This document shows, piece by piece, positions 18,536 through 53,597 of a stretch of DNA of 64,000 nt. How positions within the stretch are numbered: the stretch's first letter is position 1; every line of letters begins with the position of its first letter. Position numbers and translations under genes: made by a program. The notes beneath the pieces were generated by a model. The model was given only the letters and a program-made list of their open reading frames with translations, had not been told where the DNA came from and did not search any database. Origin of the DNA: Carex sylvatica (lineage: Eukaryota > Streptophyta > Magnoliopsida > Poales > Cyperaceae); NCBI GenBank assembly GCA_964058845.1, contig CAXKVR010000274.1:29834-93833 (forward strand), written 5' to 3'.

Positions 18536-21235
18536 AGAGTTTTTTTTATTTCAATTGTTTTTCCCCTACCTCAACTGACAATGAATCTCATTTCCATTGC
18601 ATCTTTTTCCTTCCACAACCGCCTTCACGCCACCACCAGCAACTATCTTTCTCCTCCCCCATTCCTAGGATAGCATATAGATCTTTCAACCCGGATAGCT
18701 ACCTCAGCCGTGCTTGGCCCTTTCTGAAAGAATATCTTTTCGCTCGCTCTTGAAACTTTGGTGGACTATTCTTTAAAAAAAGAAAAAAAAAACTCATTAA
18801 ATTGGGTGATACCCTTTTTTGGAGTGTAAGCTTCACTTCAAATATGTATGGTTTTGAAAAGGAAAGCAGCAGCAAGATCTAGAGCACCTTCCCCAACCAA
18901 GGCATCACTATTAACTAACCGAAGCATCATCCCATTCATTCAATGGTGGAGGCGAAAATTCGCATTCTCCATTACCCACTCAATGCTCTAAAAATAAAAA
19001 CTATACCACGTAATCTGCAACTTTTCTGAACACATCTGTAGCTTGGTGTGTATAGTCAACGGCTTAAGTATAAATAAGTAACTTACGGTACATAAAGGTG
19101 GGTTCTCAATCTGAGAAACCTGGTAGAAAAGGTCAAATTTCACTTTAGCTACACGAGTGTTGAAACATTGAGGCGGGCTGAAATGAAAAAATGGAGGTTT
19201 TACTAATGTAAAGCTTAGCTAATTTCCTGCTTTCTTATACTAATTAATAGCTTATTTTTACTACTTAAATGCTACTACCAATGCTACTTTACTGTTGTGC
19301 ACGGATGTGCTCTCTTTAGTTTGATTAGCTTCTTCTATGGCTTGCTACGTGCTCGCTCACTCACTCTATTCGTCCTGGCGCACTCTGTGCGTGCCTGCCT
19401 AATTCAGAAACAGAAGTAGAGCCAGCTAAAGAAGCATATTAAGTTCCAAAACAGTAGAGATTTCAAGATAAGTTCATTCGCTTGAAAGCTAGCTTAATAT
19501 GGAGCATTTTGAAAAATCGTCAGAACGAATCTAGATCTCGTCATATCACTTTCTTCCCCATTGGCTCAGCCTAGTTCTTTACCACCGGGTAATGTTTTCC
19601 CCCTTTTCTTTTATAAGGAATTCATATTTAACAGGATCATATGTGATGCAATAACTGAGATAGCTTTTTGGAGGCCAGGTGATGATATTAATTGGAAACG
19701 GATAAAGTCCCCGTTTGGTCCGATTCGAGGTACTCTTTTTTGAAAAGGCAAATTCTTGGTGTCAGTTCGAATTTTTTTCTTTATCCCGGGCCAAACCCAA
19801 CAATGAAGCTGGTGGAACTTCAAGTTCCAATAGGTTTCGGAACCAAGTATCTTGTTGATTTTATGGGGGAGTTACTTCTTTTGAAAAGAGATAAAAAGAG
19901 GATAGGAGAAAGGTACTATGTCACTTAAAAGTTTGTTTTTTAGTTAGTTGAAGGAAATCAATTTTTCTCGGTGCATCGATATTGATTGGTGATTATGCTA
20001 GATTTATGGGGTTTTTTAGTTCAGCAGTGGTTGTTGATTCTCGTCAGTTTCAGGGAGAAAAAGAGTATATATTTTGTAGACTTGAGTGAGAGATTAGCAT
20101 CAAAAGTAAATGTGTTCCGTCTACAACATACATGAAAAAAGATATCATCGAACGATACTATACACCTGAGTTCTTCCATCCATTTGCTGAACCACCAATG
20201 TGTCTTACACCTAACTGTTGTAAACTCAGAGTTTGATTTGCTAGTATGATGTTGTTTTTTTTTCATTCCGTTTTGTCCTCTTGAATCTCTTGAGCTACGC
20301 CCTTGTAGTGAAAAATTAGGATTTTCTCGCATGTCCATAAACTAAAGCAATCCTATTACCATGGGATCAAGGATTGACGCCGGATTTCAAAAGTTTTATA
20401 TAAAAAAAAACACGGTAATGGACATCTATATCTGCCCACTTCATTTTGGGGAATCAAATATATCGCATATCAAACGCGGAAAGGCCTCCGCTGAGTATTC
20501 CAACTAGATGTTCTAAATTTCACTTGAATGAATCCAAACAAGTATCCCACCCCTCATTGAGGAGACATTCCTCCGCATTATACTTAACTAATGACGAGCA
20601 AGATAACTAAAAAAGATTAGTGTTGCGGAAATATTATTTCTTTTTTGAATCAGAATATGCTTAACATCAAAACTAGCATGTTATGAATCATCATACTCTG
20701 CTGTGTCTAGTCTGTACCCTATTCATCAACTTTTTACCATACAAACAAGCATTGAAGCATACATTTTTATTTTTTAACATTCCATTCGCTAAATTTTGAA
20801 TTTGGCCCTTCTTTCATTTTGAACAGAGATGAAGTCGGGGTCTGAGTAAGCTGTCGCGCGGTAATGCCCGAAGCTGGTGGTCGATATCTCCTCTAAACCT
20901 TCGTGCCACCTATACTATAGTGCGTGTTAGTTATGTGTGTGACTGTTTTTGTTGAAGTTATTATTTTATTTTGCAACGGAGTTTCTATTTTCAGGTCAAT
21001 AGGAATATAGGATGGTTTGGAACATGTCATATGCACAATTGCATAATGAGACTGAAAAGATATTTTTTCTTTGGAATTTGGATTTTGATTGAGACGGAAT
21101 CTGGACTTAATTAATTGGGACTTAAGCATTAAATCCTGTGTTCACAAACAAACAAATAAAGCACCTTCGAAGGAGTAGTATACCGGCTTGCTTGGTAAAG
21201 CACAGTCAGCGTTAGAGGTAAAATAGAATAATAAA
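18536..21235. other. Gene-poor stretch
   Basis: No recognised gene. A pair of overlapping + strand frames near 19561-19928 (60 and 78 codons) may be one frameshifted coding remnant, but I recognise no family. The rest is AT-rich, with short homopurine/homopyrimidine runs. Confidence 0.3.
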
Positions 21236-21838
21236 AAGGTTTTGTCTCGAGGAGGTCGGACAGATGAGGTAACAATGCTTGGTCTCATTTCGGCTTGTGC
21301 AAATCGCGGTGCACTTGACCCAGCCAAACGGGTCCATTTCTATGTAAAAAACCACGGGCTTTACAAAGTTTTTTCAGTAGGCAATGCTTTAATAGACATG
21401 TTTGCAAAGTGTGGGGGCCTAGCTGATGCATGTAAGGTGTTTGAAGAAATGCCTAGGAAGAATATTCGAAAATGGACAAGCATGATCATGGGTTTTTCCA
21501 TGCATGGCGATGGAAAGTCAGCTCTAGCTTTATTTGATCGTATGAAAGCCCAAAAAGGGATCAAGCCAAAGCAAGTAACTTTTGTTAGCCTACTTTATGC
21601 TTGTAGTCATGCGGGATTGGTAAAATAAGGTCAGTCTCTATTCGAAAGCATGGTTAGGGATTATAATATTGAACCAAGACATGAGCATTATGGATGCATG
21701 GTCGACTTGTATGGCCGGTCCAAACTTATGAAAGAAGCGGTCAAACGAGACCATACCGTACCGTTTCTAATGTAGTTTTTTGGGTGGGGGTCCTTCTTGG
21801 GGGGAGGGTACACGGTGAAGTCGAGCTTGCTTGGGGAT
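21236..21838 (+). pseudogene. PLS-class PPR protein fragment
   Basis: The open stretch to 21626 encodes about three pentatricopeptide-type repeats: a TDEVTMLGLISACANRGAL segment, VGNALIDMFAKCGGLADA followed by VFEEMPRKNIRKWTSMI, and KPKQVTFVSLLYACSHAGLV. These are the S/P/L motifs of the plant PLS PPR family, RNA-binding proteins of mitochondria and chloroplasts. A TAA at 21626 interrupts the next L motif. The frame then continues with SLFESMVRDYNIEP..EHYGCMVDLYGR and, after another shift, a GVLLGG-RVHGEVELA segment that normally precedes the E domain. The N-terminus and E/DYW tail are missing. It lies in unrelated DNA and looks like a truncated duplicate. Confidence 0.85.
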
Positions 21839-24632: not shown

Positions 24633-24637
24633 CTTTC
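24633..24637. repeat. Target site duplication CTTTC (left) of family A
   Basis: CTTTC directly precedes the outer TG of the left LTR. The same five bases follow the right LTR at 32618-32622 in the same orientation. Confidence 0.9.
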
Positions 24638-24804
24638 TGATAAGCATAAATTATATACACATTTAATCTAGATTTTATTATGAAATAACACCAATTGTCT
24701 TGTATTTATTATATAAAGTGATCAAAATACACCTAGAATCAAGTTATTGCAGTTATTTGGCTTTTCGATGCAGGAAATAGTGCAAAATACCAAAAATACC
24801 CCCC

Positions 24805-25097
24805 CAGTGCGGATCAACCACCCGCACTGCGGATCAATCCAGCCGCACTCGAGACGCAGAGGAAAAGTCCGAGCCTAGTGCGGACGCACTGATGCCAGTG
24901 CGGATGAGCCCATCCGCATTCAGAACTTGGCCAACTTTCGGCAACTTCAGAAGAGCAGATTCCACCCGCAGTGCGGGTCATCCATCCGCAGAGCCATCCG
25001 CACTCAGAGAAAATTACAGAAGTTAAATAAGGAAACTTGTCCCAGTGCGGGTGAAGCCACCCGCAGTGCGGGTCATCCATCCGCACTGGACCCGCAG
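24805..25097. repeat. GTGCGG/CCGCAC palindrome array, left LTR A
   Basis: About a dozen half-sites of GTGCGG or CCGCAC, many paired into imperfect palindromes such as GTGCGGACGCAC (24880s) or GTGCGG-N9-CCGCAC (24807-24827). They stand out as GC-rich in an AT-rich LTR. The mirror copy is at 32158-32450. Confidence 0.85.
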
Positions 25098-25255
25098 AAA
25101 GCCAATAACTGCCCGGTTTGACAGTTTTTCTATTTTTGGCGCTTTATGGACGCGTTTTTACTGCCAGAAATACACTTACTTGCCAGGGAAGTAATGCTAA
25201 ACAGAGCACCCACTAACCCCACCTTCTAGCCTCTAAATCGGGCATAATCCTTGGC

Positions 25256-25263
25256 TATAAAAG
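25256..25263 (+). promoter_or_regulatory. TATA box of left LTR A
   Basis: TATAAAAG, preceded by GC-poor sequence and located about 0.6 kb into the LTR. The inferred transcript would run into the internal region antisense to gag. Confidence 0.6.
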
Positions 25264-26453
25264 GGAGAGTCCTTTCCCAAACCATCGATCATTCAATCTC
25301 ACATCAACCAACACACCATCATTCTCTCTTTACACACACTTAGCGATAAATTCTGGAGGAAGGAAAGCTTTCAAGCAAGGAGAAGAAGGATTTCTGGAGC
25401 AAGATTCGGCAAGATAGAGGGCTTTGATTTGTCAAAGGGTGTAATTGCTTCTTTTATTTCATTTCTTCTTACTTTGCCAATTTTTGTAATGGATCTCTCC
25501 AAGAGGGAGTAGTTCTCTCTCTAGGGGTTTAGGTCATCATGCATGAACTTGTTTAATTCTATTTTATTTGGTCATTTGCTTTTATTATGATTGTTATATG
25601 GGATTTGATTGTTAATTTCTGTGATTTTATAATTTGTGTTAATTACATAGTTAGTACTTGAATTGTAGTATCCCGTTTTAGTTTCAAAAGAACTAAAATT
25701 GACTAGGATCATATAGGATAGTACCAATTATGAATGCAAATATCCTAGGTTTAGATTAAGATTCTAACCAATTTAATCTAAGCCGGAACTATAGAAATTA
25801 AGATTAGGGACTTGGTGAAGGACCTAACCGTGAAGTCAAACCCTAATTAGGACATCTCAAATCAAGTCGGATATTGGTATCATGGACTTTATTGAGAAGT
25901 ACCAATACTCGAGGAGAGGAGAGACTAACAAGAGCTTATGGTCTAGGTAGCTAGGGTGAAGGACCTAATCGTGAAGTCCGAATTACCTAGACACGTTATT
26001 AATTCACGAAAGTGACCCTTAATAACATATTAGGTTAGAAACCTCGTCAAATCATACATGAATTCAAGCAAATACCGAATAGATAGAATTAGCAAGGGAT
26101 TGTAGACCAAAGGCCCCTAGATCTTTAAATCTTGAAAGCAAACCGATTACTTTTCTTTTACTTTTATTTACTTTAATTGTTTAAAATTCCTCTTTCGGGT
26201 ATTGAACCCAAACTTTAGGATTACTTAAACAACCCCCATTTACTTTACTTTATTGCACTTTACTTTATTATTATTTACTGAAATTAATTATTTAGGGTTT
26301 AAAACTAAGTATTTTCCATACTCTCTGTGGATCGATACCTCAAATACTACTTTGATATAATTGTGCACTTGCAATTAGACTCAAAAGCATTTAAGGTTTA
26401 AAAGGTACATCTCATTGTACTGAAACTTTTTAGCGTACACTTTACGCGCATCA

Positions 26454-27782
26454 AGTTTTTGACAAAATCCCCCAAGCTTGAACCTTGCTTGTCCTCAAGC
26501 AACATCTAAACTCGGACTACAATTCAATCCTTAATTTAACCCCAATATCAAGTATACATTTCTTCCAAAAATTTTACGAAAAATTTGTATGATCTTGCCA
26601 AAAATTTAGAAACTTCAACGTAAATTTTTACAAATTTAAAGTTCAACCCTTGGTTAATCATAATTCACCCCACAATTTGCTTACTCTAACTTTTATTTCC
26701 TTAAAGACTTAAAACTTGTAAACTTTGGAAATCTAAACTTATTACAAAAACTTCATACTTATTTTGCAGAAATTCTTTCAAAATCCCCCAAGCTTGGAAC
26801 AAGCTTAGGTTAGAAATTCGCGGACTTCGTGTGTTGATATTTACAAAATTCTTTTCTTCTTTTGTTACTTTTTATTTTATGACACTATAATTCTTTATCC
26901 TTAGAACAAAACCGGTTAGTTATAAGTAGTTAACCATGCCCAACCGTTTTAATTCAAAAGTGCATTTTACATTGCTCTTGGTTCAACCCTTCCATGACAC
27001 GAACCTACATGGTTAGTGCAAACCCGGTCACTTTATCGGGCAAACTAGCGGAGCAAAGTGTCGATAACTCATTGCTACAAGTACGTCATGTCGCCGTAAC
27101 ATAAGCAAGCGAAATCTAAAAATTATTTTTTTTACTATTTTTCAACATTTTTGCAAAAATATCATGAATACACACATCCTTAGGCATTAATTCATACCTA
27201 TGGATATCCCGATCTTTCTAAATTCTTTTTCCTCATTTAAGTCGTGTTTTCAGAAATAAATTTAAATTCTAAGTTTTCATTTTCGTAAATCTTTATTTCC
27301 ACAAAGTTTTTCGCCAAATTATGTGGTTATTTCTAATTATTCCAAGGGTATTACTAAGAATTCGTTCGCATCCAAGTTTCTAATTTCCGTCAATCACGCA
27401 AATTTATCAAAAATTGTTATTTTTGCCAACTTTTAACACAGAAATTAAACATGATTTTATACTTTATGCATAATTAGACAATTAAGTCCAATTATGCAAG
27501 ACTCTATTTTTATAACCTCGTAAAACATCTTGACGAATTTGCAATTTCAAGCAATTAAGTTCAAAATCACAAATCCTATTCATGGTCAAGTAAAAGTCAA
27601 GGTTATAAATCCTAAATTTTAAAAAAAAAAAATCTAAAATTAATGCAATGCAAGATACAATTTCTTCCTATCCCCCAAGCTTAAATTAAGCATTGTCCCC
27701 AATGCGTAAAAATAAACAAAAGTAAATAGGGAGAAACATGAACTACTCTATTGGCGGAAGGTGGTGGTGGTGCTGTGCGGTC
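26454..27782 (-). other. Non-coding 3' internal region of family A
   Basis: No ORF. In element sense it carries two modules of the same design: a perfect hairpin followed by AAGCTTGGGGG. The hairpins are 27690-27705 (6-bp stem, 4-base loop) and 26485-26502 (7-bp stem, 4-base loop); the polypurine-like tracts are at 27672-27682, 26785-26795 and 26469-26479. The tract next to the LTR is in the position of the plus-strand primer (polypurine tract). Homologous DNA makes up the internal regions of the family B elements at 45.3-46.5 kb and 52.5-53.5 kb. Confidence 0.75.
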
Positions 27783-30686
27783 TCAATGCTTGGATGGAGG
27801 ATCGGGAGGGCGGCCTCCCCATTGCCCCATTTTGTGTTGATTTTCTCGAGGTTTGTCGATTTCAGATGTTGCCACCGACTTCTCTCGCACATATTCTCTA
27901 TTAACCGGATATGTCTTGTCTTCTCCCAAGTATTCATAGCGAAGGGTAGGTGGTAGAGGCTTTAGTTCGACATTTGGTGTGTTCGAATTTGATGAAACGG
28001 TGAAAATCTGTGCAGAATTTGACGAGTGCGGGTGCTCCATCCGCACTGCGGGCTCGGTGCGGACGCACTGGGCGTGGACAATCATTTCTGCAGCTCCAGG
28101 AGGCTCAGTGCGGCTGGATTCATCCGCACTGCGTGTGGTCCACCCGCACTGAGGAGAATTTTCACCGATTTGCTCGTTTTCGAAGTCGGTTTCTTTAAGG
28201 ATTTGGTCCAGTTGCTCATTCACCATCTCTTCCTCCATTTTGGTAGCTATAATAGAATCTAAAATATCCAATCTACAAATAGAATCATTATCATTTGAAG
28301 GATATTTGATGGCATTAAACATATGAAAATTTACCTTTTCGCCTCCGATGTCAAAGGATATCTTTCCTTCTTTGACATCAATGTTTGCTCTTACAGTGGT
28401 GAGAAAATCACGCCCCAATAGGAGAGGGGTATGAGTATCCTCTTCCATCTCAACAATCACAAAATCTACCGGGACAAAGAACTTACCAATCATGACAATT
28501 ATATCTTCCGCTATACCCTCGGGATATCGTACCGTCTTATCGGCTAATTGAAGTGACATTCTTGTGGGTTTCAAGTCACTAAGATTTAGCCTTTGATAGA
28601 CGGATTTTGGCATAAGGCTCACACTTGCGCCTAAATCACATAGACACCTCTCAAATTTGGTATCACCAATTACACAAGGGATTGCAAAGCTCCCCGGGTC
28701 CTTTAACTTCGGAGGTAGCTTGTTTAAGAAGAGAGCGCTACACTCCTCATTAAGGGATACCGTGCCAACTTCCTCAATTGCTCTCTTGTTAGATAATATG
28801 TCTTTCAAGAATTTTGCATAAGAGGGCATTTGAGTAATTGCTTCGGTAAAAGGGATGGTGATACTCAATTTCTTGAGGTGTTCCACAAATTTGGCATATC
28901 GTTGGTCAAGTTTGTGTTTTACTAACCTTTGAGGGAATGGTATAAACCTTTGTGGTATAACATACTTGGGTATTTCAATTGGTTTTACCTTAGCCGGGAT
29001 AGAATTACCCGGTTCTTGAGATTCTTTTGATGCCGGTGTATCCGCATTGAGAGGAGTTGGAGGTTGTTGTGCATCCTTTGGCGGTTGTTGTTGCTCTTCA
29101 ATGGTCGGCATCTTGGGTCCTTCGTATCCCGTGCCACTCCTCAAGGTTATCGCCTTCGCTTGCTCCCTAGGGTTGATGTCCGGCTTGCCCGGTAGCGTGC
29201 CTTGTTGTCGGAAGGATGAAGACGCTTGTTGTGCAACTTGTATTTCTAGCATTGAGGTCTTGGTGTCTAAGAACTCAACCTTCTTCTTCAAATCTCTCAA
29301 AGAATCCAAAACATCCGTGTTGGTGTTCCTTTGGTAGGTAATGAAGTCTTGTTGTTCGGTTCTCATCTCTTGCAACATCTTTTGTATATCGTTGATCTGA
29401 GAGAGATTTTGGTAGGAGTTTTGATTTGCTTGGTTTTGGTATTGGTTCGAATTACCTTGGTATTGGTTGGAGTTGTCGTTTTCGGTCCGCCAATTGAAGT
29501 TCGGATGGTTCCACCTATTGTTAGAGTTATAAGAGTTTGAATTGAAATTATCATTTTGCCTAACCTTATTATAGATCGGGTCATTCCTCTTATCTCCTTG
29601 ATTGTAGAACATGGCGTTCGCTTGTTCTACCTTGTCGCCTTCAAGAAGGGTTGGGCAATCGGCGGTAAGATGAGTCGCCTCTCCACATATGCCGCATGGA
29701 GCCATCTTGGTCATGGATTTTGCGTTGTGCATTTGTGCCATTTGATGTTGTAAGGCCTCCATTTGGGCTCTCAAAGCGGTAACCTCGTCGACTTGCATAA
29801 CTCCCGGTGTGTTGTAGGCTCGTCCTCCTCGCTCGGCCGTCCACTCCCTTTGGTTGATCGCCATATCTTCGATCATTGCCATGGCTTGTGTCGGATTCAT
29901 ACGTGACATGTTGCCCCCGGCGGCCGAATTTAAATGAGTTTTGGTAGCTATAGAGCAACCCCCATAAAAGAATTGAAAAAGCAACCACATGTCAAGGCCA
30001 TGGTTGGGGCACAAGCGTTGGAGCTCCGCCCATCGGTCCCATGCCTCAGTCAAAGACTCCCCCTCTGCTTGCTTGAACGTTGTGATTTTCGACCGGAAAT
30101 GTTGGGTCTTCGATGGAGGGAAGTATTTCCCTAGAAATAGCTTCTCCATGTCGTCCCATGTATCTATGTTGTCTCGGTTGACGGTCTTCAACCATGTTCT
30201 CGCACTGTCTCGGAGGGATAGGTGGAAGCACTTGAGTTTGAGGTTGTCTAACTCATCTCCTTCTCTTGCAAAGGTGCCGCAGTGCTCTTCGAATACCGCC
30301 AAATGGGCATGTGGGTCTTCGTTTTGAGCTCCTCCAAATTGGTTTTGGCCAAGTAGGTGGATCAGAGATGGCTTAATTTCACGTGGATCTTGGCCATGAG
30401 GGATGAAGCCAAAGCGATGTCCATTGTTGTGTTGACGGTTATTTCCATTGTGGTGTCCATTGTTAGGACCGTTGTTGTTGTGGTTATTGTTGCGCTCGTT
30501 ACGAGGTGGAGATAATCCTCGTACACGGGTGTTATTGCTTCCATGTTGTGATTGTTCGTCATGGACGGATTGTTGTCCGTGGTTGGATTGGTTTTCCTCG
30601 AATATTGGGTTAACAATGGGAGGAGTTGCCATGCTTAATATATCTTCTAACCAAAGCGTTCCTAGAGGGATTCTCCCAAAGCTCAT
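27783..30686 (-). CDS. Athila-like gag-protease polyprotein, open, no pol
   Basis: 967 codons, uninterrupted. Order: low-complexity Asn/His-rich N-terminus (about 60-95), retrotransposon gag capsid domain (about 125-245), zinc knuckle C-GIC-GEATH-LTADC (331-344, CX2CX4HX4C), Asn/Gln-rich linker and coiled coil (430-490), aspartic protease with CDLGAS (683-688; D-L-G in place of D-T-G, as is usual in the Athila lineage) and TPLLLGRDFL (753-762). Residues ~847-890 are encoded by a copy of the GTGCGG/CCGCAC palindromes also found in the LTR. The VELKPLPPTLRYEYLG segment (906-921) that normally leads into reverse transcriptase is present, but the frame ends 46 residues later: RT, RNase H and integrase are deleted. 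It would form capsids and process gag at most. The start is the first Met after the primer site; a second Met at codon 19 is equally plausible. Confidence 0.88.
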   Translation of the reverse strand: MSFGRIPLGTLWLEDILSMATPPIVNPIFEENQSNHGQQSVHDEQSQHGSNNTRVRGLSPPRNERNNNHNNNGPNNGHHNGNNRQHNNGHRFGFIPHGQDPREIKPSLIHLLGQNQFGGAQNEDPHAHLAVFEEHCGTFAREGDELDNLKLKCFHLSLRDSARTWLKTVNRDNIDTWDDMEKLFLGKYFPPSKTQHFRSKITTFKQAEGESLTEAWDRWAELQRLCPNHGLDMWLLFQFFYGGCSIATKTHLNSAAGGNMSRMNPTQAMAMIEDMAINQREWTAERGGRAYNTPGVMQVDEVTALRAQMEALQHQMAQMHNAKSMTKMAPCGICGEATHLTADCPTLLEGDKVEQANAMFYNQGDKRNDPIYNKVRQNDNFNSNSYNSNNRWNHPNFNWRTENDNSNQYQGNSNQYQNQANQNSYQNLSQINDIQKMLQEMRTEQQDFITYQRNTNTDVLDSLRDLKKKVEFLDTKTSMLEIQVAQQASSSFRQQGTLPGKPDINPREQAKAITLRSGTGYEGPKMPTIEEQQQPPKDAQQPPTPLNADTPASKESQEPGNSIPAKVKPIEIPKYVIPQRFIPFPQRLVKHKLDQRYAKFVEHLKKLSITIPFTEAITQMPSYAKFLKDILSNKRAIEEVGTVSLNEECSALFLNKLPPKLKDPGSFAIPCVIGDTKFERCLCDLGASVSLMPKSVYQRLNLSDLKPTRMSLQLADKTVRYPEGIAEDIIVMIGKFFVPVDFVIVEMEEDTHTPLLLGRDFLTTVRANIDVKEGKISFDIGGEKVNFHMFNAIKYPSNDNDSICRLDILDSIIATKMEEEMVNEQLDQILKETDFENEQIGENSPQCGWTTRSADESSRTEPPGAAEMIVHAQCVRTEPAVRMEHPHSSNSAQIFTVSSNSNTPNVELKPLPPTLRYEYLGEDKTYPVNREYVREKSVATSEIDKPRENQHKMGQWGGRPPDPPSKH
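28024..28152. repeat. GTGCGG/CCGCAC palindromes inside gag-pro
   Basis: Eight or more half-sites identical to those of the LTR array, including GTGCGG-GTGCTCCAT-CCGCAC and GTGCGGACGCAC, lie within the coding frame near its 3' end and are translated in frame. The two arrays are otherwise unrelated in position. Confidence 0.85.
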
Positions 30687-30777
30687 AAAACACTGGAGAA
30701 GAAATCAAGGTTAGAATAAGATAAAATAAAATCTGAAATAAAATCTTAAAGTAAAAGCTAAGTATTTAACCTAATAC

Positions 30778-30795
30778 TCCCCGGCAACGGCGCCA
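30778..30795 (-). other. tRNA-Asp primer binding site, family A
   Basis: On the minus strand, TGGCGCCGTTGCCGGGGA, 18 bases complementary to the 3' end of plant tRNA-Asp as remembered for Athila/Tat elements. It starts 6 bases after the end of the right LTR, which fixes that copy as the true 5' LTR. Confidence 0.88.
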
Positions 30796-30801
30796 AAAAC
30801 T

Positions 30802-32617
30802 TGATGCGCGTAAAGTGTACGCTAAAAAGTTTCAGTACAATGAGATGTATCTTTTAAACCTTAAATGCTTTTGAGTCTAATTGCAAGTGCACAATTATAT
30901 CAAAGTAGTATTTGAGGTATCGATCCACAGAGAGTATGGAAAATACTTAGTTTTAAACCCTAAATAATTAATTTCAGTAAATAATAATAAAGTAAAGTGC
31001 AATAAAGTAAAGTAAATGGGGGTTGTTTAAGTAATCCTAAAGTTTGGGTTCAATACCCAAAAGAGGAATTTTAAACAATTAAAGTAAATAAAAGTAAAAG
31101 AAAAGTAATCGGTTTGCTTTCAAGATTTAAAGATCTAGGGGCCTTTGGTCTACAATCCCTTGCTAATTCTATCTATTCGGTATTTGCTTGAATTCATGTA
31201 TGATTTGACGAGGTTTCTAACCTAATATGTTATTAAGGGTCACTTTCGTGAATTAATAACGTGTCTAGGTAATTCGGACTTCACGATTAGGTCCTTCACC
31301 CTAGCTACCTAGACCATAAGCTCTTGTTAGTCTCTCCTCTCCTCGAGTATTGGTACTTCTCAATAAAGTCCATGATACCAATATCCGACTTGATTTGAGA
31401 TGTCCTAATTAGGGTTTGACTTCACGGTTAGGTCCTTCACCAAGTCCCTAATCTTAATTTCTATAGTTCCGGCTTAGATTAAATTGGTTAGAATCTTAAT
31501 CTAAACCTAGGATATTTGCATTCATAATTGGTACTATCCTATATGATCCTAGTCAATTTTAGTTCTTTTGAAACTAAAACGGGATACTACAATTCAAGTA
31601 CTAACTATGTAATTAACACAAATTATAAAATCACAGAAATTAACAATCAAATCCCATATAACAATCATAATAAAAGCAAATGACCAAATAAAATAGAATT
31701 AAATAAGTTCATGCATGATGACCTAAACCCCTAGAGAGAGAACTACTCCCTCTTGGAGAGATCCATTACAAAAATTGGCAAAGTAAGAAGAAATGAAATA
31801 AAAGAAGCAATTACACCCTTTGACAAATCAAAGCCCTCTATCTTGCCGAATCTTGCTCCGGAAATCCTTCTTCTCCTTGCTTGAAAGCTTTCCTTCCTCC
31901 AGAATTTATCGCTAAGTGTGTGTAAAGAGAGAATGATGGTGTGTTGGTTGATGTGAGATTGAATGATCGATGGTTTGGGAAAGGACTCTCCCTTTTATAG
32001 CCAAGGATTATGCCCGATTTAGAGGCTAGAAGGTGGGGTTAGTGGGTGCTCTGTTTAGCATTACTTCCCTGGCAAGTAAGTGTATTTCTGGCAGTAAAAA
32101 CGCGTCCATAAAGCGCCAAAAATAGAAAAACTGTCAAACCGGGCAGTTATTGGCTTTCTGCGGGTCCAGTGCGGATGGATGACCCGCACTGCGGGTGGCT
32201 TCACCCGCACTGGGACAAGTTTCCTTATTTAACTTCTGTAATTTTCTCTGAGTGCGGATGGCTCTGCGGATGGATGACCCGCACTGCGGGTGGAATCTGC
32301 TCTTCTGAAGTTGCCGAAAGTTGGCCAAGTTCTGAATGCGGATGGGCTCATCCGCACTGGCATCAGTGCGTCCGCACTAGGCTCGGACTTTTCCTCTGCG
32401 TCTCGAGTGCGGCTGGATTGATCCGCAGTGCGGGTGGTTGATCCGCACTGGGGGGGTATTTTTGGTATTTTGCACTATTTCCTGCATCGAAAAGCCAAAT
32501 AACTGCAATAACTTGATTCTAGGTGTATTTTGATCACTTTATATAATAAATACAAGACAATTGGTGTTATTTCATAATAAAATCTAGATTAAATGTGTAT
32601 ATAATTTATGCTTATCA
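30802..32617 (-). repeat. Right LTR of family A (true 5' LTR)
   Basis: 1816 bp, reading TGATAAGC...GCGCATCA on the minus strand, followed by the leader AGTTTT and the primer site. Its palindrome array is at 32158-32450. Length is equal to the left copy with no indel noticed. Confidence 0.92.
31992..31999 (-). promoter_or_regulatory. TATA box of right LTR A
   Basis: TATAAAAG on the minus strand, the mirror of 25256-25263. It would drive the sense gag transcript. Confidence 0.6.
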
Positions 32618-32622
32618 CTTTC
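32618..32622. repeat. Target site duplication CTTTC (right) of family A
   Basis: CTTTC immediately outside the right LTR, identical and in direct orientation to 24633-24637. Confidence 0.9.
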
Positions 32623-42688: not shown

Positions 42689-43808
42689 TGTTACACTAAA
42701 ATGTATAGTACAATGTTTCAGTATAGCAAGCTATACTTTTTAACTTTGATTACACTTTCAACTCAGATTGCAAGTATACAATCATGTCGCATAGTATTAT
42801 CAGGTATCAATCCAAGAGACGGTTCGAACTTTACCAGACTTTACTTAAGTTAACTATAATCTAGAAGTGAGAAATGGTAATTTGGTTGTATTAAAATAAT
42901 AAAGATTTTGGTTTTTGTTTTAGAAAGAATTAAAAAAAGGGTTTTTAGGATTTCTGATTCATCTTTAACTCTGCCTCTTGGTACCTGATGCGGGCCGTGT
43001 ACTTTCATACACGATCTGTGTGACCCTCGAGTTAATATAGCAGCTATTCATTTCTGTGTCGGTAGCTTTGTGTAGAAATTTATTGACCGTACTTGATGTT
43101 CCTAAACCTTACCTCTCGTTTGTTAGCTTAATAAACTCGGTACTGGAATTGCAATTTCTGTCCTCTTAGGTTTCTAAACTTAAACTCTCGTTTGTTGGTA
43201 TTCTACCTAAGTTACTTGTCTAATTTACTAAAGGTATCCACCATCTCTCGACGCATGGAAAGTTCATCTCTCGGCTCACAAACCTACCTCATATACTTAG
43301 TCTGATTGAGAGAAAAATCAAGGACAAAGTACAAGACAGATGTTGCAGTTCATCTAACAGTAAACCAAGAATAATCTAAACAATTTCAACTAAGCAATTA
43401 AAATACTACTCAAACAACTAAACACAAATATCAACACAGATTCAAATAACTTGCATATAAAACAAAGTATTCGACTACATCATAACCCTAGAAACTAAAG
43501 AGTCTAAATTAACATAGTTAAAGAGAAAACAAAGTAAATAGAAAGAAGAAAGAAATAATAAAACTCTAAGAAATCAAGCTCCAAGTCAAGCCTCCTATTT
43601 TCAAGCCCTCGAAACAAAGTGGAGAAGAATGGTGGTATCTCAGAGATGGCCTCCGCAAAAGGGAGATATCATTCCTCCTGCTGCCTCCCTCTCATTTATA
43701 GCTATTTTGTGACTTGGGGAGCAAGCAACCAAGGATGGAAGCTGAATCAATCAAGATCTCATGCGATATGGCAATAAATTTCAGCTGATGTCTTTCTAAA
43801 AAGGTTCA
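42689..43808 (-). mobile_element. Family B LTR fragment (B1)
   Basis: The 3' ~1.1 kb of a family B LTR on the minus strand, ending ...GTGTAACA at 42689. It aligns with the copies at 43809 and 53598 (shared phrases 'gtttcagtatagcaagctatac', 'ggtatcgatccaag'). It includes a TATA element (ctataaatg on the minus strand, near 43700). Its upstream U3 part is missing because the next B copy begins at 43809. It interrupts the zinc-knuckle ORF; ATTAC at 42684-42688 would be the target duplication, but the partner was not found. Confidence 0.75.
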
Positions 43809-45269
43809 TGTTACACCAAAAGGTAATGCACAAAGTTTCAGTATAGCAAGTTATTCTTTTTAACATTGATAACACTTTTGACTCAGATTGCAAATATACA
43901 ATCCTGTCGCATAGTATTATCAGGTATCGATCCAAGGAATAGTTCAAACTTTACCGGACTTTACTTAAGTTAACCAAAATCTAGAAGTGAGAAATGGTAA
44001 TTTGATTGTACTTCAAACAATAAAGATTTTTTATTTTGGTTTTAGAAAGAATAAAAAAAGGTTTCTAGGATTTCTGACTTCATCTCAGCTTTCCCTCTCA
44101 GTGTCCGGTCCGTGCCCTCTCATGCACGGGCCGTGTCTAATGTACACGGGACCTCAACTGTCGTTTGTTAGTCCGTGTGGCCCTCGAGTTAATATAGCAG
44201 CTATTTGTTTCTGTGTTGGTAGCTTTGTATAAGATTCTATTGACCGTACCTGATGTTCCTAAACCTTACCTTTCATCTGTTGGCTTAATAAACTCAGTAC
44301 CGGAATTGTAATTTCTGCCCTCTCAGGGTTCAAAACCTCAACTGTCGTTACAACGTTTTTAAAACGTTACAATGTTTTATTTTGAATTCTGATACAACTG
44401 TGCTTAAAGCTCTGACACTCTTGAAACGTTACAACTGTTGTAAAACATTGTAACGTTTCATATTGATTTGCACAGTTATATTACAGCTGTTCTGACAACT
44501 TAAAACGTTACAACGTTTTATTTTATTTTCTGAGTTTGATCAATTATTTCTTCAGCGTTTCAGACATGCCTAAAAAGTTACAACGTTTTACAAACGTTAC
44601 CAATGTTTTATTCCTGTTTAAACAGCCTCAAACTTACTTTACCAAGCTTCTGATTTTACAATTCAAATTCTTGATAAGTATCTTCATGATTTCTTCGGTC
44701 CAAGTATTTCATTATGCAATTTCATTTGACTTGAACCTACATATTTTTCAAAACTAAAAGAAATCGTAAAATTCAATAATTGTATGTTTTTGCAAATTAG
44801 TCAAATAGACGAAAAAGATTATTGTATGTTTTTGCAAATTAGTCAAATAGACAAAAAAAATTATTGCTACAATCAACAGCTTTTATTTGCCTAAAACGGA
44901 GTTCGTATGGCCAAAATACGGAAAAATATCGAAAGCTGGAATTTATGCGAATATATGTGCGGTCCGTAAGTAGTGTGCGGCCCGTAAGTAGTGTGCGGTC
45001 CGTGTACTCTGTTTTAGCTGTGAATCAAACTCAAATGGGCATAACTCCTTATCCGTAACTCTGTTTTCAGTGTTCTACCACTTTTTAAAAAGCTTGCGAG
45101 AAAATATATAATTTGTTCAATTTTCTGAAATTTAAATAAACTTGGACAGTAACTTGATTTTTGATATAATTATGAACTAAATTAAACTAAATTAACCTAA
45201 ATGCATAGAAATTGGTCAAGTTATTGATATAAAACCCTAGGCAAAAGTATACATAAGTTATACTCATCA
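43809..45269 (-). mobile_element. Family B 3' LTR (B2)
   Basis: 1461 bp, reading TGATGAGTATAAC...GGTGTAACA on the minus strand. It follows a polypurine-like AAGCTTGG tract and a TTGCTTG-GGGA-CAAGCAA hairpin (45288-45305), so it is a 3' LTR in normal orientation. It contains GC-rich palindromes near 44100-44155 and 44955-45006 and an ACGTT palindrome cluster (separate entry). Its 5' partner is the fragment at 52194-52493, with a family D insertion between them. Confidence 0.78.
44341..44613. repeat. AACGTTACAACGTT palindrome cluster in LTR B2
   Basis: About six copies of (A)AACGTTACAACGTTT or half-copies, spaced 30-70 bp apart. Each is close to a perfect inverted repeat of ACGTT. The B1 and right-hand B copies lack this cluster and instead carry different sequence after the common 'aatttctgccctct' phrase, so it is a copy-specific block within the LTR. 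Confidence 0.8.
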
Positions 45270-46595
45270 AATTTTTCCAAGCTTAAACCTTGCTTGTCCC
45301 CAAGCAACATCGAAACCTAAGTATCAGGCCAGTATCTAAACTTATCAAAATTCCATTTAAATTCCTAACTGCGAAAAACTTACATGATCTTGCCATTATT
45401 AAAAACCTCGATAATTCTTTTGGATAACAATTTGGACTTCCCTTGATCAATTATAATTCACCCCACAATTCGATCAATTAAATTTCATATTCAAAGATGC
45501 CTTAACAATATTTAATTCTTCTACCAAAATTATGCCCTCATTTTGTGGTGATTTTTCTTCCCCCCCCCCCCCCCCCCTCAAACTTGAAACAAACTTAGGT
45601 TAGAAAGTCGCGAATTTCGTTGATATATGCAAAAAAAATTGAAAGTTTTCAAGCTCAAAAGCATCCCGTCGGATTGTGTCAGGACTCTTTTTTTTGGGAG
45701 ACGAACTCAAAGGCATCCCGTAAGATTTATTGTCAGTACTCTTATTTTCTCCATCTTTTTCTTTGTTTCATTTTTTATTTTATTCATTTGCATATATCAT
45801 GAATACACACATTCAAAGATATTATTTCATACTAATGGATATTCCAATCTTTCTATTGTTTAAAATCCTCAATTTCCTAATTTAAAATACAATAAATAAA
45901 TCGGTTTCAAAATATTTTTTCGATAAAATTTAATTTTTTATTTTTTTCAAAATCTCAAAACATCTCATCCTATGCAATTCTTTGATCAAACATGGGGTTA
46001 TTTCTAATTTTTTAAAGTCATCCAAATCACAAACAATTCCTTAATCCTAGCAATCACACAAATTTATCACCTAAAAATGCAAATTTAAAAAAATAAAATA
46101 AACATGAGTTTTATACTTTATGCATTTTCAGACAATGAAGTCTAATTATGCAAGTTTCTATTTTTCATAACCTCGTAAAACATCTTGACAAATTTGTAAT
46201 CTCAAGCAATTAAGTTAAAAATCACAAATTTTATTCAAGGTCAAGTAAAATTCAAGGTTATAAATCCTAAAAAAATTGAAAAACATACAAAAAAAATCCA
46301 AATAAACATGACTTAAATACAAATACAATTTTCTTCTATTCCACCCTACAAGCTTGAATGAAGCATTGTCCTCAATGCTTCAATTTAGACAAGAAAAAAT
46401 AAATAGAAGAAAATATAGAAACTTACAAAATATGGAGCAAGGTGATTGGCGGAGGATGATTGGCGAGGGCAATTGCCTCCTTTTCGCCAATGTGTTTCCT
46501 GTGAAAATAAGAAAAAGAATAAGAAAAAGTAAGATACAAATTAAAATCTAAAATTTAGCAAAAATAAGCGAAATCCAAATTTTTTTGTTGCCGTC
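45270..46595 (-). other. Coding-free internal region of family B element
   Basis: Homologous to the 3' non-coding region of family A: the same hairpin-plus-AAGCTTGG modules, with hairpins at 45288-45305 and about 46361-46380, and the same 'cttaggttagaaagtcgc' phrase. A remnant of the gag 3' end may lie near 46435-46495. There is no ORF for gag or pol, so the B element is a very short non-autonomous unit (about 1.3 kb internal). An 18-base C homopolymer sits at 45560-45577. The region is broken by the D insertion immediately after CCGTC (46591-46595). Confidence 0.7.
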
Positions 46596-47630
46596 TGTAG
46601 GGCGCAGAAAGTCGCACGGGTCAGGTTAGCTAACGGTGCGGATTATATTTAAATGGAATTGCTCCCGCATGGGTCTAGTGCTCTAGTTCTCTAAACAGAC
46701 ATGAGCTGTGAGCACCGGACTCGGGGCATTCATTGTTTGACATCTCCCTGCTTTTCTCCTGGTTCACCCTTGTGGCGGGCCTACGTTCATGATCAGTCTA
46801 TTGGAGTTTTATTATTTCGATTGTGGGGACGTTTAACTCCCGACGGGCGCAAGCCCCCGCTGTTAATTACATCAGAAAGACCTTTGAAGTCAAGCTGAAT
46901 ACCTCATTCATTCTGGAATTTGTGCCTATTGGTTGTGAACTGAGTAATGAGATTTTAAATAGGTCTCATGTAAGGTTCATATGGTCATTTGGTAGGTTCT
47001 CGATTGACTTAGACATGATTTGAACATTTTATCTTGGTCCTATGTGCATATGCATATGCTTAAAATATTTTTAAGACATGCGAATATGCATAGAAGCATC
47101 GTTTGTATGATTTAAACTTAAGAAGACATGTTCAAATATTATTTTTTATATTTTTATTTATAAAGATATGTCAAGAGAGGGGCATTTTCATCACTTCATG
47201 TTATGACTGAAACTTGAACATATTTGAATTTGGTTTAGAATGATAGGAAATTTAATTTGAAGTCATTTGGAACTGGTTTGAGTCGATTTGGACTTGAAAC
47301 GAAGAAGTTATGGCTAAAAAGGACTGAAAAGGACTTGTCTGTGAAGTTTTCATTCTTCCAGAGACATATTTGTAAATGTTTCATGCTAATGGGGACATTG
47401 TTGTCCATGTTCTGTGCAGTTTTGATATTTAATTTTGATTTAACTTCAAATTTCAATTCAGAGATGAATATAAGCCCAAATGGTACAAATTTGGTGTCTA
47501 TCTTGACTGACTTGAAGTCTAGTTTCTGAATACATGATTTATTTGATGTTTTAACCCTTTTAGGGGTTTCAAATTGGCAATGCAACAGTCAGATGTCCAT
47601 TTTTCTGACAATAGCATTTTTCTGAGTAGC

Positions 47631-48410
47631 TGAACTTTGGAGATTAATTCCCGTCAACTGGCTATACCAAATTCCATGTTCTTTACATGAAAACCCTCCT
47701 TGAGTCATGACCTGTATGCACATAAAACAATTTCATCAAACTCAATTCAGAAGTATATGAAACATGTGTTTTTTGTATAGGAGAGTTTGCTGGTAAACAG
47801 CTGCTGTCATCATGCTGACAGCCAACTTCAAAAATTCATTCTAGGAGTTCTGCTGAACCGATTTTCATGTTATTTATATGAAAACTCTCAGAGCAGAGAG
47901 CTCTACGTTCTGGTAAAATTTCATAAAGTTTGGAGCTACCTAGCTGTACCAGACAGAGGATTAAATACAGGGACAGATGCCCATTTTCTGGTAAATGGTA
48001 CAGCAGCGCAATTGAACTTTGGAGATCAATTCCCGTCAACTGGCTGCACCAAATTCCATGTTCTTCACATGAAAACCTTCCTTCAGTCATGACCTATATG
48101 CACATAAAACAGTTTTATCAAACTCAGTTCAGAGGTATATGAAACATGCGTTTTTGCACAGGGGAGCTTGCTGATTAACAGCTGCTGTTACCATGCTGAT
48201 AGCCAACTTCAAAAATTCATTCCAAGAGTTCTGCTAAACCAAATTTTATGTCCTTTATATGGAAATTCTCAGGACATAGTGCTCTATATTATGATGAAAT
48301 TTAATGAATTTTGAAGCTACCTAGCTATACCAAACGGAGGGTTAAACACAGGGGGTAGATATGAACTGTGCTGGTATTTACTCTCTTTTTTTTTTATCAT
48401 TTCAAGGGCT
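47631..48410. repeat. ~382-bp tandem subrepeats in LTR D
   Basis: The phrase 'tgaactttggagat(t/c)aattcccgtcaactggct' starts at 47631 and again at 48013, and the following ~380 bases align unit to unit. A third, much degraded start is near 48410. Confidence 0.8.
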
Positions 48411-49730
48411 GAACTTCAGAAAATCATAATTAATTGTAGAAAAATCCAAATAAATGAAAATTTAACTTTAAACTGTGTGGAATGAAGTTCTCTACACACT
48501 GGTATAATTTATTTTACATTTCAGTCCATGCATCAGTCTGTATTGACCGATTTACCAGAATATATCATTTTCATTGGTTTTAGACATGATCATTAGGATA
48601 TCATGGTTTTGAGAATATGAGTGACCCAAATCAGTACATACTGATGCCTACTCACATGTTTGGACTCCATCCTTCAATATATGCACATTAAATCACTTTT
48701 ACCCTCTTGCTTCATGCAATCTAGTGCATATGACTTGTTCTTAGCCTTGCATTGGGATTTAAGCTTATCAATGCACATTATAGGTCCATTTGATCAAAGA
48801 AATAGTAAAGAAACCAGCCGACTTAACTTTACTATTCCTATTTTATTATTTTTCATTCTGTATTTTATTCTTTGATCTTCTAATCAAATAACTTTGATCA
48901 TTCAAATATAAAGGGAAATCAGCCGACTTAACCCCTGTATTCTTATGACCTCTATTATTTAATTGAAGATTAAAGAACTTAGTTTAAAAGAAAATCAAAG
49001 AAAATAAAGGAAAATTCATAAAATCAAGAAAGAAGAGGAAGAAAGAAAGAATAATTAAAAAAGAAGGATGAAAGGTGCATTCATAGCTATTTTTTGTATT
49101 TTTTCATAAAAAGGGAGAAAGAAATGCACATTTTTATATCTTTTAATTAAATTTCAGCAACAAAGAAAATGAAAGAACCATGTATATAAACATTGGAGAG
49201 TCCTTGGATTTTATCAACCATCATAGTTGTATTTCCTCCTCTCAATCAAACATATATTTTTATTAAACCTCATTGTTTCATCAATTGTAACAAGAGGAAG
49301 ATTAACATTTTTTATAGAGAGCTTAAATCCATGACTATGATTGGAGCAATGATTTTAAGCCTCTTCTTGACAAACAAAGAGATGAATCAAGCAAAAAAAG
49401 AAAGAAAAAAAAGGAAGAACAAACAAGAACAAAGATGAACATAATAAGAGAACAAGATAGATCTCAAGCTTCAAGTAAGAAGCATTTTTAATTTTTTATT
49501 AATCCATGGTTTTATACATATACATCATGGCCATTAAAGCACTATATTACATCATTTCTAGCTAATTATCTATAGCATAGATTGGGATTTGGGAGATTTC
49601 TAACTTCATTTGAGCTATATGGAGGCTTGCCATGGGAGGCCGAATATAGGTGTACATGTGTGTGTGTGTGTGTTTCGGCCATGGGAGTCCTTAGCCATGA
49701 GATGCTTGTTTTTTTTCTTTTAGGGTGCTC

Positions 49731-49738
49731 CTTATATA
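49731..49738 (-). promoter_or_regulatory. TATA box of LTR D (left copy)
   Basis: TATATAAG on the minus strand. The D copy at 54284 has a TATA element in the equivalent position, both next to an 'aaaccctag' phrase. Confidence 0.5.
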
Positions 49739-50194
49739 GCCTTAAGGCTAGGGCAACACTAGGGTTTCAATCTTGCATCTTCATCTTAGCCATTCATTTC
49801 ATCAAATGATTATCATGCAAGAAGGATAAGAATGGCTAGCATATTCTATAGCATATTCTTTAAGGGAGCATAGCATATTCTTCATGAGCTTATCCATAGC
49901 ATATGACATATTCTCCATGAGCTTATCCAATTGATTGAAGCACATGTGGGACCCATATGGCGGGTTTAATTGGAGATAAGGTAGTCGAATCATTTGAATT
50001 TGATTTCACTCGGCTCAGACACCATGTTTGGTTGTGGCCTTGGAATAAGGAGTTTAGACCTAGTTATTCCACCAAACGTGCCTTAATTGAGCCGGACTAA
50101 GATGGCATAAGCCAATCTTTAGGCCGGCCTAAATTAAACCACTTCACATGGTGGTTTAATTTTTATTCCACCTCATGGCCTAACTTGAATGATT

Positions 50195-51097
50195 ATAATA
50201 ATAATTTATTTGTATATAATTAGTATATTATTATTAGTATATAATTATATAATTAATATCTTTTTATTAATAATTATTATTAATAAATAATTATATAATT
50301 ATTGTGTTATATTGTTAATATATTAAATAATTATTATCTAATATTGTAATATATTATAGTTATTATTAATATATTAATATTGTGTAATTAGTATCTTATT
50401 AACGATATATAACTATATAATTAATATGTTATATTGTTAATATATTAAATAATTATTATAATAATATTATAATATTTTATAGTTATTATTAATATATTAA
50501 TATTATATAATTAGTATCTTATTATTAATAATTATTATTAATATATAATTATATAATTATATCCTATATTGTTAATATATTAAATAAATATTATAATAAT
50601 ATTATAATATATTGATATTATATAATTAATATTTTCTTATTAATAATTATTATTAATATGTAATTATATAATTAATATGTTATATTGTTAATATATTAAA
50701 TAATTATTATAATATATTATAGTTGTTATTAATATATTAATATTATATAATTAGTATCTTATTATTAATAATTATTATTAATTTATAATTAATATTGTTA
50801 ATATAGTAAATCATTATTATAATAATAATATAATATATTATAGTGGTTATTGATATATTAATATTATATAATTAGTATTTTATTTTTAATATATAATTAT
50901 ATAATTAATATTTTATGTTGTTAATATATTAGATAATTATTTTAATAAAATTATATAATTAGTATCTTTTTATTAATAATTATTAATAATTTATAATTAA
51001 TATTTTATATTATTAATATATTAAATAAGTTTTATATTAATATATAATATATTACAGTTATTAATAATATATTAATATTATATAATTAGTATCTTAT
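50195..51097. repeat. ~120-bp AT-rich minisatellite
   Basis: About eight degenerate units made only of A and T apart from a recurring 'tagtatctt' phrase, which appears near 50391, 50514, 50754, 50964 and 51089 with degenerate versions near 50255, 50634 and 50875. Spacings are mostly 120-125 bp. Confidence 0.8.
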
Positions 51098-51106
51098 TAT
51101 AAATAA

Positions 51107-51484
51107 GATGAGGGATCGGATGACACCGTTTTTTGGTGACATCGGATGACACCGTCCATTTTCAAAGTCCAAACGGTCGATCCAAACCGTTCAACTTGAT
51201 GGATATGTTAAAATGTGCTTGCAGATCAAATTTTACATTTTTCAGAATTTTTTTACTATTTATTCAGATGGGTTCAAAAATTCAACGGTCTGAATATAGC
51301 GATTTTGTTAAATACTTAATAAATAGTAAAAAAATTCCGAAAAATATAAAATTTGATCTGCAAACACATTTTAACATATCCATCAAGTTGAACGGTTTGG
51401 ATCGACCGTTTGGACTTTGAAAACTTTGAAAATGGACGATGTTATTCGATGTCACCAAAAAAGGGTGTAATCCGATCCCTCCTC
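51107..51484. mobile_element. MULE-type foldback MITE
   Basis: 378 bp. The left end GATGAGGGATCGGAT and the inverted right end GAGGAGGGATCGGAT match 14/15, and the inverted homology extends for roughly 150 bp into each arm. It is flanked by a perfect 9-bp duplication TATAAATAA (51098-51106 and 51485-51493), the length produced by Mutator-like transposases. No coding capacity. It is inserted at the right edge of the AT minisatellite. Confidence 0.88.
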
Positions 51485-52169
51485 TATAAATAATTAACCA
51501 ATTTAGGCTTTTAAAACTTTAGTCCTCCACCAACTCTAACCAAACAAGAAATAGTTTAAGTTATGATTTAACTTTAGGCCTTAACTAAACATGAATAATT
51601 TAGACCAATCTAAGTTAGAATAATCAATTTAGGCCTCCTTAGCTTTAGGCCACAACCAAACATGGGATGGCTTAGAAAGCTTAGAGCTGCGCTTTAATTC
51701 CATTAGCTCATTTAGCTTCGTGCCATTAACTTCGGCCCATTAGCTGCGCCTTTAATTTCATTCGGCTTAGAGAGCTGCTGAATTCTTTGAAACCATGGCA
51801 ATTAATTTCCATGCACATGCAATTCGGCATATAGCTAAGCCCATTTTGTCTCTTCTTTTAATTTTTGTTTCAATTCAAATAGAAGCCGTGAGCCTCATTT
51901 TAATGATTAAAGAGATATATCCATTTTCTCCATTTCAACTTAGAATGGACATCTCCATTTCTCATTTTGATTTTCAAAAATCCATAACTCTTCAATCACT
52001 TTGAGTTAGGAAGTGTATAATATATCAAAATTCATGGTGTAGAATATTATCATGTATTCTAACACGCCATTATACATTCATCTTGGAGAGCCTTCATGTA
52101 TTTTTGGCATTTTCCAAGTGTTTTAACATTGCCATTTTTATTTGAGCAACTTTTTAGGGTACAACACCG

Positions 52170-52187
52170 TCCTCGGCAACGGCGCCA
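52170..52187 (-). other. tRNA-Asp primer binding site, family B
   Basis: The same 18-base primer site as family A with one mismatch, 6 bases from the end of a B LTR. It is separated from its own internal region by the D insertion. Confidence 0.8.
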
Positions 52188-52193
52188 AAAACT

Positions 52194-53573: not shown

Positions 53574-53591
53574 TCCCCGGCAACGGCACCA
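53574..53591 (-). other. tRNA-Asp primer binding site, second family B copy
   Basis: The 18-base site with one mismatch (TGGTGCC for TGGCGCC), 6 bases from the LTR end at 53598. Confidence 0.8.
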
Positions 53592-53597
53592 AAAACT

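What the first reader, a model, noticed from the sequence alone, without database searches (positions are those of the whole stretch)
24638..32617. LTR retrotransposon integrated with inverted LTRs, both ends U3
The two 1816-bp LTRs are reverse complements of each other, yet the insertion has a perfect direct 5-bp target duplication (CTTTC). The DNA molecule that integrated therefore already carried a U3 end at each terminus. The inverted copy extends exactly through AGTTTTTG, i.e. the leader and the first two bases of the tRNA-Asp primer site, then joins the complement of the polypurine-tract side. That breakpoint points to an aberrant reverse-transcription product (LTR plus leader, like plus-strand strong-stop DNA, joined to minus-strand internal sequence) rather than a later chromosomal inversion. 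The LTRs differ at about four transitions by eye, so it is recent.
Basis: partly seen in the sequence, partly recalled or inferred. Interest (0 to 1): 0.88.

Follow-up and report, generated by a model that had tools for sequence, protein, structure and literature searches.

The report
Retrotransposon inserted with one LTR flipped
A plant-type jumping element was inserted with its two end repeats pointing at each other instead of the same way, and two more copies in the same genome carry related fold-back ends, which points to a recurring copying mistake made before insertion.

Summary
Confirmed. At 24638-32617 a 7,980-bp gag-protease LTR element has inverted LTRs (1,824 bp, 4 transitions, no gaps) flanked by CTTTC on both sides, so both outer ends are U3. 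In 29 of 29 other fetched copies and close relatives the polypurine tract runs straight into a normal 3' LTR (...TTT or ...ATT|TGATAAGC). Here it keeps the first TG of that LTR, then one extra base, then the complement of PBS "TG", leader and LTR. New: it is not alone. A second copy (C178) has perfect AAATT target duplications and a 3' end folding back inside U3. A third (C38) folds back at a 7-base inverted match and returns to the U3 start; its target duplication and 5' LTR could not be checked. So 3 of 30 copies examined carry an inverted 3' end. Best reading: a U3-initiated plus strand (strong-stop DNA) switched onto plus-sense element sequence, giving cDNA with unusual right ends that integrase still joined. 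Reads, an empty allele and relatives were not available.

The parts
24633..24637 (.). Left target duplication CTTTC
   Evidence: Sequence; family makes 5-bp duplications
24638..26453 (+). Inverted LTR (TGATAAGC...GCGCATCA), outer end U3; stands where the 3' LTR should be
26454..26459 (+). Leader AGTTTT, copied together with the inverted LTR
   Evidence: the same leader precedes the PBS in other copies
26460..26461 (+). TG, first two bases of the PBS, i.e. complement of the tRNA 3' CA
   Evidence: tRNA-Asp genes
26462..26462 (.). One extra base (A on +, T in element sense) matching neither side
   Evidence: Read
26463..26464 (-). TG in element sense: first two bases of the missing normal 3' LTR
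   Evidence: 29 of 29 others have the tract followed by TGATAAGC
26465..26480 (-). Polypurine tract region CAAGCTTGGGGGATTT (extent approximate)
26780..26793 (-). Second PPT-like copy GCTTGGGGGATTTT 316 bp upstream; found in 29 of 30 copies (up to 3 mismatches) but not specially conserved
27783..30686 (-). 967-aa open frame: Retrotrans_gag and aspartic protease; no RT or integrase matched in it
30778..30795 (-). Primer binding site TGGCGCCGTTGCCGGGGA for tRNA-Asp(GTC)
   Evidence: Sequence; tRNA genes
30796..30801 (-). Leader AGTTTT after the 5' LTR
30802..32617 (-). 5' LTR, normal arrangement
32618..32622 (.). Right target duplication CTTTC

Best explanation
A non-autonomous, Ty3/gypsy-like gag-protease element was copied into an aberrant linear cDNA with a U3 end at both termini, and a trans-supplied integrase inserted it in one normal concerted event. 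Shown by sequence: two U3 outer ends, matching 5-bp target duplication, leader plus two PBS bases on the inverted copy, a 1-base insertion without microhomology at the internal join, LTRs that fit identity at insertion. Inferred: plus-strand strong-stop DNA (start at U3, end two bases into the tRNA copy) gained one untemplated A and its 3' end switched onto the 3' end of an upstream plus-strand segment that stopped 2 bases inside U3 (or the reverse, with that segment as primer). Copying to the far 5' end gave a duplex with U3 at both ends. The same error class, with the switch at short inverted matches inside the LTR, made the fold-back 3' ends at C178 and C38. The confidence given is for a pre-integration cDNA with two U3 ends; for the strand switch by reverse transcriptase in particular it is about 0.55.
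For: Inverted LTRs and CTTTC duplication. Tract directly followed by TGATAAGC in 29 of 29 other fetched copies and relatives; of 100 listed of 103 PPT-like sites, 83 run into an LTR start, 8 are the upstream PPT copy, 1 is the window junction, 8 are other sequence. Of 28 exact leader ends, 27 continue with G as in the PBS and only the window's left LTR continues with A. The two LTRs are 99.8% alike; the next full-length LTR among those scored is 98.0%. C178 copy: AAATT on both sides, outer end TG; its inverted arm, its 3' U3 and its 5' LTR agree over the first 160 or so bases; switch within inverted repeats of U3, GGAT shared, read by eye. C38 copy: LTR 1-1407 joined to the complement of 970-1; the inverted piece is 99% identical to the adjoining LTR, other long matches at most 96%; GATTTGA shared at the switch, read by eye. 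In total 3 of 30 PPT-bearing copies examined have an inverted 3' end. Reverse transcriptases add untemplated bases, for some enzymes mostly A, and switch templates (passages of PMC6885630). RT-level template switching with intact target duplications is proposed for plant LTR elements (PMC1950507, whole text).
Against: Plus-strand strong-stop DNA is expected to carry about 18 PBS bases (recalled); only 2 are present, so early stop or prior primer removal must be assumed. The 2 bases of U3 kept on the internal side need a second assumption (limited strand displacement); the second PPT that could start such a segment is hardly better conserved than its surroundings (rank 47 of 425 windows). Partial LTR copies elsewhere come close to the window LTRs (C689 and C483, 99% over about 1.17 kb), so near-identical sources exist; only 40 of 845 candidates were scored. 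For C38 the target duplication could not be read and one search listed no closely similar 5' LTR there, so its two-U3 state is unproven; the 95 bases next to its switch also match C273 at 100% and C237, C943 and C8 at 99%. C178 ends in internal sequence, not in U3, so the three cases are not identical; its 3' U3 and 5' LTR differ at 9 of 456 positions overall, more than one recent cycle would leave, though not in the first 160 bases. No reads, no empty allele (each flank occurs once).
Confidence: 0.82

Rival explanations
1. End-joining before integration: a broken-off double-stranded LTR end piece of the cDNA was re-joined backwards to the internal piece by host end-joining, and the resulting two-U3 molecule was integrated. 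Same two-U3 cDNA, different enzyme; this shares the confidence of the best explanation.
For: The window join has no microhomology and one inserted base (read), as end-joining often leaves. The inverted piece ends about where the right end of linear cDNA should lie.
Against: The internal piece and the LTR piece both contain the U3 TG, so they are not simply two halves of one molecule. The C38 and C178 ends are fold-backs at 7- and 4-base inverted matches, which fit polymerase switching better.
Confidence: 0.27
2. Post-integration change: a normal element whose 3' LTR was replaced on the chromosome by an inverted copy of its 5' LTR through replication template switching.
For: Both LTR ends carry TGAT/ATCA, a 4-base match that could guide the second switch. 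The 1-versus-3 split of mutations does not exclude a somewhat later copy (p 0.63).
Against: Needs two independent switches, one of them exactly at the LTR end beside the target duplication. C178 and the window both have perfect 5-bp duplications right at a TG outer end. In C178 the inverted arm, the 3' U3 and the 5' LTR agree over the first 160 or so bases.
Confidence: 0.08
3. Two separate insertions in opposite orientation followed by a deletion between them.
For: Opposite-facing neighbours do occur where elements nest (general knowledge); partial LTR copies up to 99% alike exist elsewhere.
Against: Target duplications would differ (chance match about 1 in 777); the two LTRs are 99.8% alike against 98.0% for the next full-length copy scored; the deletion would have to end within 2 bases of both the PBS start and the LTR start.
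Confidence: 0.02
4. Assembly or library artefact (inverted chimera).
For: Inverted chimeras with short matches are a known artefact of amplified or single-molecule libraries (recalled); no reads were available.
Against: An artefact would need two false joins and a matching target duplication; the LTR arms differ at four transitions, so they are unlikely to be one sequence used twice; C178 also has a perfect duplication. For C38 the artefact is not excluded.
Confidence: 0.08

Closest known systems
Template-switching complex LTR insertions of Triticeae, rice and maize (Sabot and Schulman 2007, PMC1950507, whole text read)
   Same: Abnormal element judged to be made during reverse transcription because it has 5-bp target duplications and matching outer LTRs
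   Different: Those have three LTRs in direct orientation and two internal regions; here two LTRs face each other and the switch changes strand sense
LTR pairs in opposite directions: set aside in a cucumber survey (PMC4600303, passage read) and mentioned for a grape TRIM (PMC7166211, passage read)
   Same: Two inverted LTR pairs within 20 kb were met in cucumber; opposite LTRs next to each other are mentioned in grape
   Different: Not analysed in the passages seen; no target duplication or junction reported there
DIRS-1 type elements (PMC5633606, passages read)
   Same: Inverted terminal repeats around gag-like and RT genes
   Different: DIRS uses a tyrosine recombinase; this element has a tRNA primer site, PPT, TG..CA LTRs and a 5-bp target duplication, and its relatives have a normal PPT/3' LTR junction
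Retroviral autointegration inverted circles (recalled)
   Same: Inverted LTR arrangement made before integration
   Different: Those are circles made by integrase acting on internal DNA; the window join is not an integrase join (no LTR CA end is joined there)

Membership tests
LTR retrotransposon, Ty3/gypsy-like | gag and aspartic protease | tested here: met
   PF03732 E 1.5e-16, PF13975 E 2.7e-6
LTR retrotransposon, Ty3/gypsy-like | tRNA primer binding site next to the 5' LTR | tested here: met
   PBS matches the 3' end of four tRNA-Asp(GTC) genes found in the same assembly
LTR retrotransposon, Ty3/gypsy-like | Direct LTRs, PPT directly before the 3' LTR | tested here: not met
   Window copy inverted; PPT/3' LTR junction normal in 29 of 29 other fetched copies and relatives. 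This copy is a malformed member
LTR retrotransposon, Ty3/gypsy-like | Intact RT and integrase genes, lineage by pol | tested here: not met
   The only frame of 150 aa or more in the element matched gag and protease only; decayed pieces were not scanned; lineage within Ty3/gypsy (Athila, Tat) not assigned
LTR retrotransposon, Ty3/gypsy-like | 5-bp target duplication | tested here: met
   CTTTC at both sides; 13 of 16 readable solo LTRs exact, 3 with one mismatch
DIRS-like element | Tyrosine recombinase, no target duplication | tested here: not met
   No such domain in the only long frame; 5-bp duplication present
Template-switching complex insertion (Sabot and Schulman) | Single integration event: target duplication and near-identical outer LTRs | tested here: met
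Template-switching complex insertion (Sabot and Schulman) | Third internal LTR and two internal regions | tested here: not met
   Only two LTRs and one internal region

The most novel reading that the evidence does not exclude
Fold-back right ends are a recurrent product of this family's reverse transcription (3 of 30 copies examined), and its integrase accepts them, including a molecule with two U3 ends and one whose second end is internal sequence beginning with TG. A proper U5 end would then not be required for concerted integration in vivo.
Probability: 0.5. Interest if true: 0.78.

Novelty: new variant of a known kind. Interest (0 to 1): 0.68.

Why it matters
Integrated copies with a strand-sense switch are a fossil record of where reverse transcription failed and of what ends an integrase will accept in a living cell. 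Common LTR finders look for direct repeats and would pass over them (general knowledge); one survey discarded two inverted pairs (PMC4600303, passage). Such copies probably cannot replicate again, because they lack a normal 3' R and polyadenylation region (inference), so each one would record a fresh error. Their LTR promoters face each other, which could make double-stranded RNA against the family (inference, untested).

Tried and rejected
Two-insertion and late-inversion models were weighed and set aside (see rivals). The three 2-mismatch and six 3-mismatch junction sites fetched carry no LTR or internal sequence of this element. An empty site was sought with both flanks: each occurs once. 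A host gene across the site was sought with Pfam: no family on the two left-hand frames next to the insertion nor on the two right-hand frames tested, which lie 2 kb or more away. The idea that the upstream PPT copy is a functional second primer was tested by conservation and not supported. Paper searches for inverted LTRs, aberrant reverse transcription or two-U3 integration found no described integrated two-U3 LTR element in the held open-access library; subscription papers are not held. Passages of PMC6189423, PMC10069891, PMC2151762 and PMC8786324 were not about such elements. One search (integrase and U3 ends) gave general integrase papers, seen as listings with the start of their abstracts.

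Full report
What is there. At 24638-32617 stand two inverted LTRs, 1,824 matching bases with four transitions and no gap, enclosing 4,332 bp on the minus strand: PBS for tRNA-Asp, a 967-aa gag-protease frame, and a polypurine tract. No RT or integrase was matched in that frame, so the element probably needs helpers in trans (inference). CTTTC flanks both ends.

The junction. In 29 of 29 other fetched copies and close relatives (84-99% alike in this region) the tract is followed directly by TGATAAGC; 18 of them read exactly GGGGGATTT|TGATAAGC, the other 11 differ inside the tract. In the window it reads GGGGGATTT, TG, T, CA, AAAACT, reverse LTR. TG is the start of the lost 3' LTR; T fits neither side; CA is the complement of the first two PBS bases, equal to the last two bases of the tRNA; AAAACT is the leader. 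Four tRNA-Asp genes in the assembly match the PBS up to the added CCA (my first pattern, one base too long, found none). Of 39 places within 3 mismatches of the join, only the window is exact; the reversed control pattern gave 7. Of 28 exact leader ends, 27 go on with G as in a PBS and one, this one, with A (of the other 35 places, with one mismatch, letters were shown for one). Of the 100 listed of 103 PPT-like sites, 83 run into an LTR start, 8 are an upstream PPT copy, 1 is the window join and 8 are other sequence.

Timing. At each of the four LTR differences 25 to 28 of 27 or 28 other copies have C or G and one window LTR has T or A: one change in the left LTR, three in the right. This fits LTRs identical at insertion. 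Divergence 0.22% gives about 84,000 years (23,000-216,000) at 1.3e-8 or 157,000 at 7e-9 per site and year; both rates are recalled. The next most similar full-length LTR among those scored is 98.0%; partial copies (C689, C483) reach 99% over about 1.17 kb, and only 40 of 845 candidates were scored.

Why before integration. The family makes 5-bp duplications (13 of 16 readable solo LTRs exact, 3 with one mismatch). The duplication, the TG outer ends and the leader and PBS bases on the inverted copy cannot come from flipping an integrated 3' LTR, which has no leader. Two insertions plus a deletion would need a chance 5-mer match (about 1 in 777) and two deletion ends within 2 bases of functional boundaries.

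It is not alone. In 30 PPT-bearing copies I looked for LTR sequence in reverse within about 1.5 kb after the tract. Three have it: the window, C178 and C38. Three of the 30 (L052, L053, L059) had no match to this LTR and were not self-tested, and several others match it only in part. The 30 are those fetched of 40 scored of 141 candidates, so the fraction is not a genome-wide rate. C178 (L071): 5' LTR and PBS in normal arrangement, short internal part, PPT, U3 to about base 450, then an inverted copy of U3 and of the 37 bases before it (PPT included), ending in TG. AAATT stands immediately outside both ends. The inverted arm, the 3' U3 and the 5' LTR agree over the first 160 or so bases; the PPT of the two arms differs at one base, and over 456 positions the 3' U3 and 5' LTR differ at 9, which a single recent cycle would not leave unless repair or conversion near the switch is assumed. 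The switch lies in inverted repeats of U3 with GGAT shared (read by eye). C38 (L039): LTR 1-1407, then the complement of 970-1 ending at the U3 start at 373914. The inverted piece is 99% identical to the adjoining LTR and other long matches reach at most 96%; the 95 bases next to the switch also match C273 at 100% and C237, C943 and C8 at 99%. GATTTGA is shared at the switch, judged with the window LTR for the bases this copy has lost. So its far end and target duplication are open.

Mechanism. All three can be drawn as one strand that begins at or just before U3, runs in plus sense, and then switches to copying plus-sense element sequence back through the PPT. In C38 and C178 the switch used short inverted matches, as in snap-back priming. 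In the window it joined strand ends with one extra base. The extra base is A if strong-stop DNA was the primer; some reverse transcriptases prefer to add A (PMC6885630, passages). A second PPT-like site 316 bp upstream, found in 29 of 30 copies (the query covered it), could start a plus-strand segment that halts near U3, but its conservation is ordinary, so this step is speculation. Host end-joining before integration is the main rival and makes the same two-U3 product.

Known or new. Template-switch complex insertions with target duplications are known (PMC1950507) but have direct LTRs. Inverted pairs were met and discarded in cucumber (PMC4600303, passage) and mentioned in grape (PMC7166211, passage). 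In the searches named under Tried and rejected I found no described integrated two-U3 LTR element. I rate it a new variant of a known kind. Limits: no reads, no empty allele, no relatives, one assembly.

Noticed in passing
L071 4259-8152 (C178:18258-22151): Fold-back 3' end with perfect AAATT target duplication, second aberrant insertion of the family; used in the finding.
   Followed up: yes
C38:373914-376290 (L039 in part): 3' LTR folds back at GATTTGA and returns to the U3 start; far end and target duplication not readable.
   Followed up: partly
C26:53296-56683: Two U3 starts facing inward 3.4 kb apart; possible further case. Only 100 of 266 U3 starts were listed.
   Followed up: no
C138:409202-411918: Two U3 starts facing outward 2.7 kb apart.
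   Followed up: no
C415:74495-85371 and C292:118801-126160: PPT regions repeated every 3,517 bp: tandem arrays of an LTR element relative.
   Followed up: no
window 42689-54281: Diverged relatives of the element in nested or repeated arrangement, segments about 75-90% alike.
   Followed up: no
window 50192-51106: AT-rich tandem and palindromic array, several overlapping periods.
   Followed up: no
window 60105-61037: 310-aa frame with a short RME-8 N-terminal match (PF19432).
   Followed up: no
window 21227-21625: Frame with pentatricopeptide repeats, part of a PPR gene.
   Followed up: no
window 26780-26793: Second PPT-like copy upstream of the true one, in 29 of 30 copies; not specially conserved.
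   Followed up: partly
L054, about 1.2-1.5 kb after the PPT: A 285-bp stretch that matches its own reverse complement at 95%, possibly a small inverted-repeat element.
   Followed up: no
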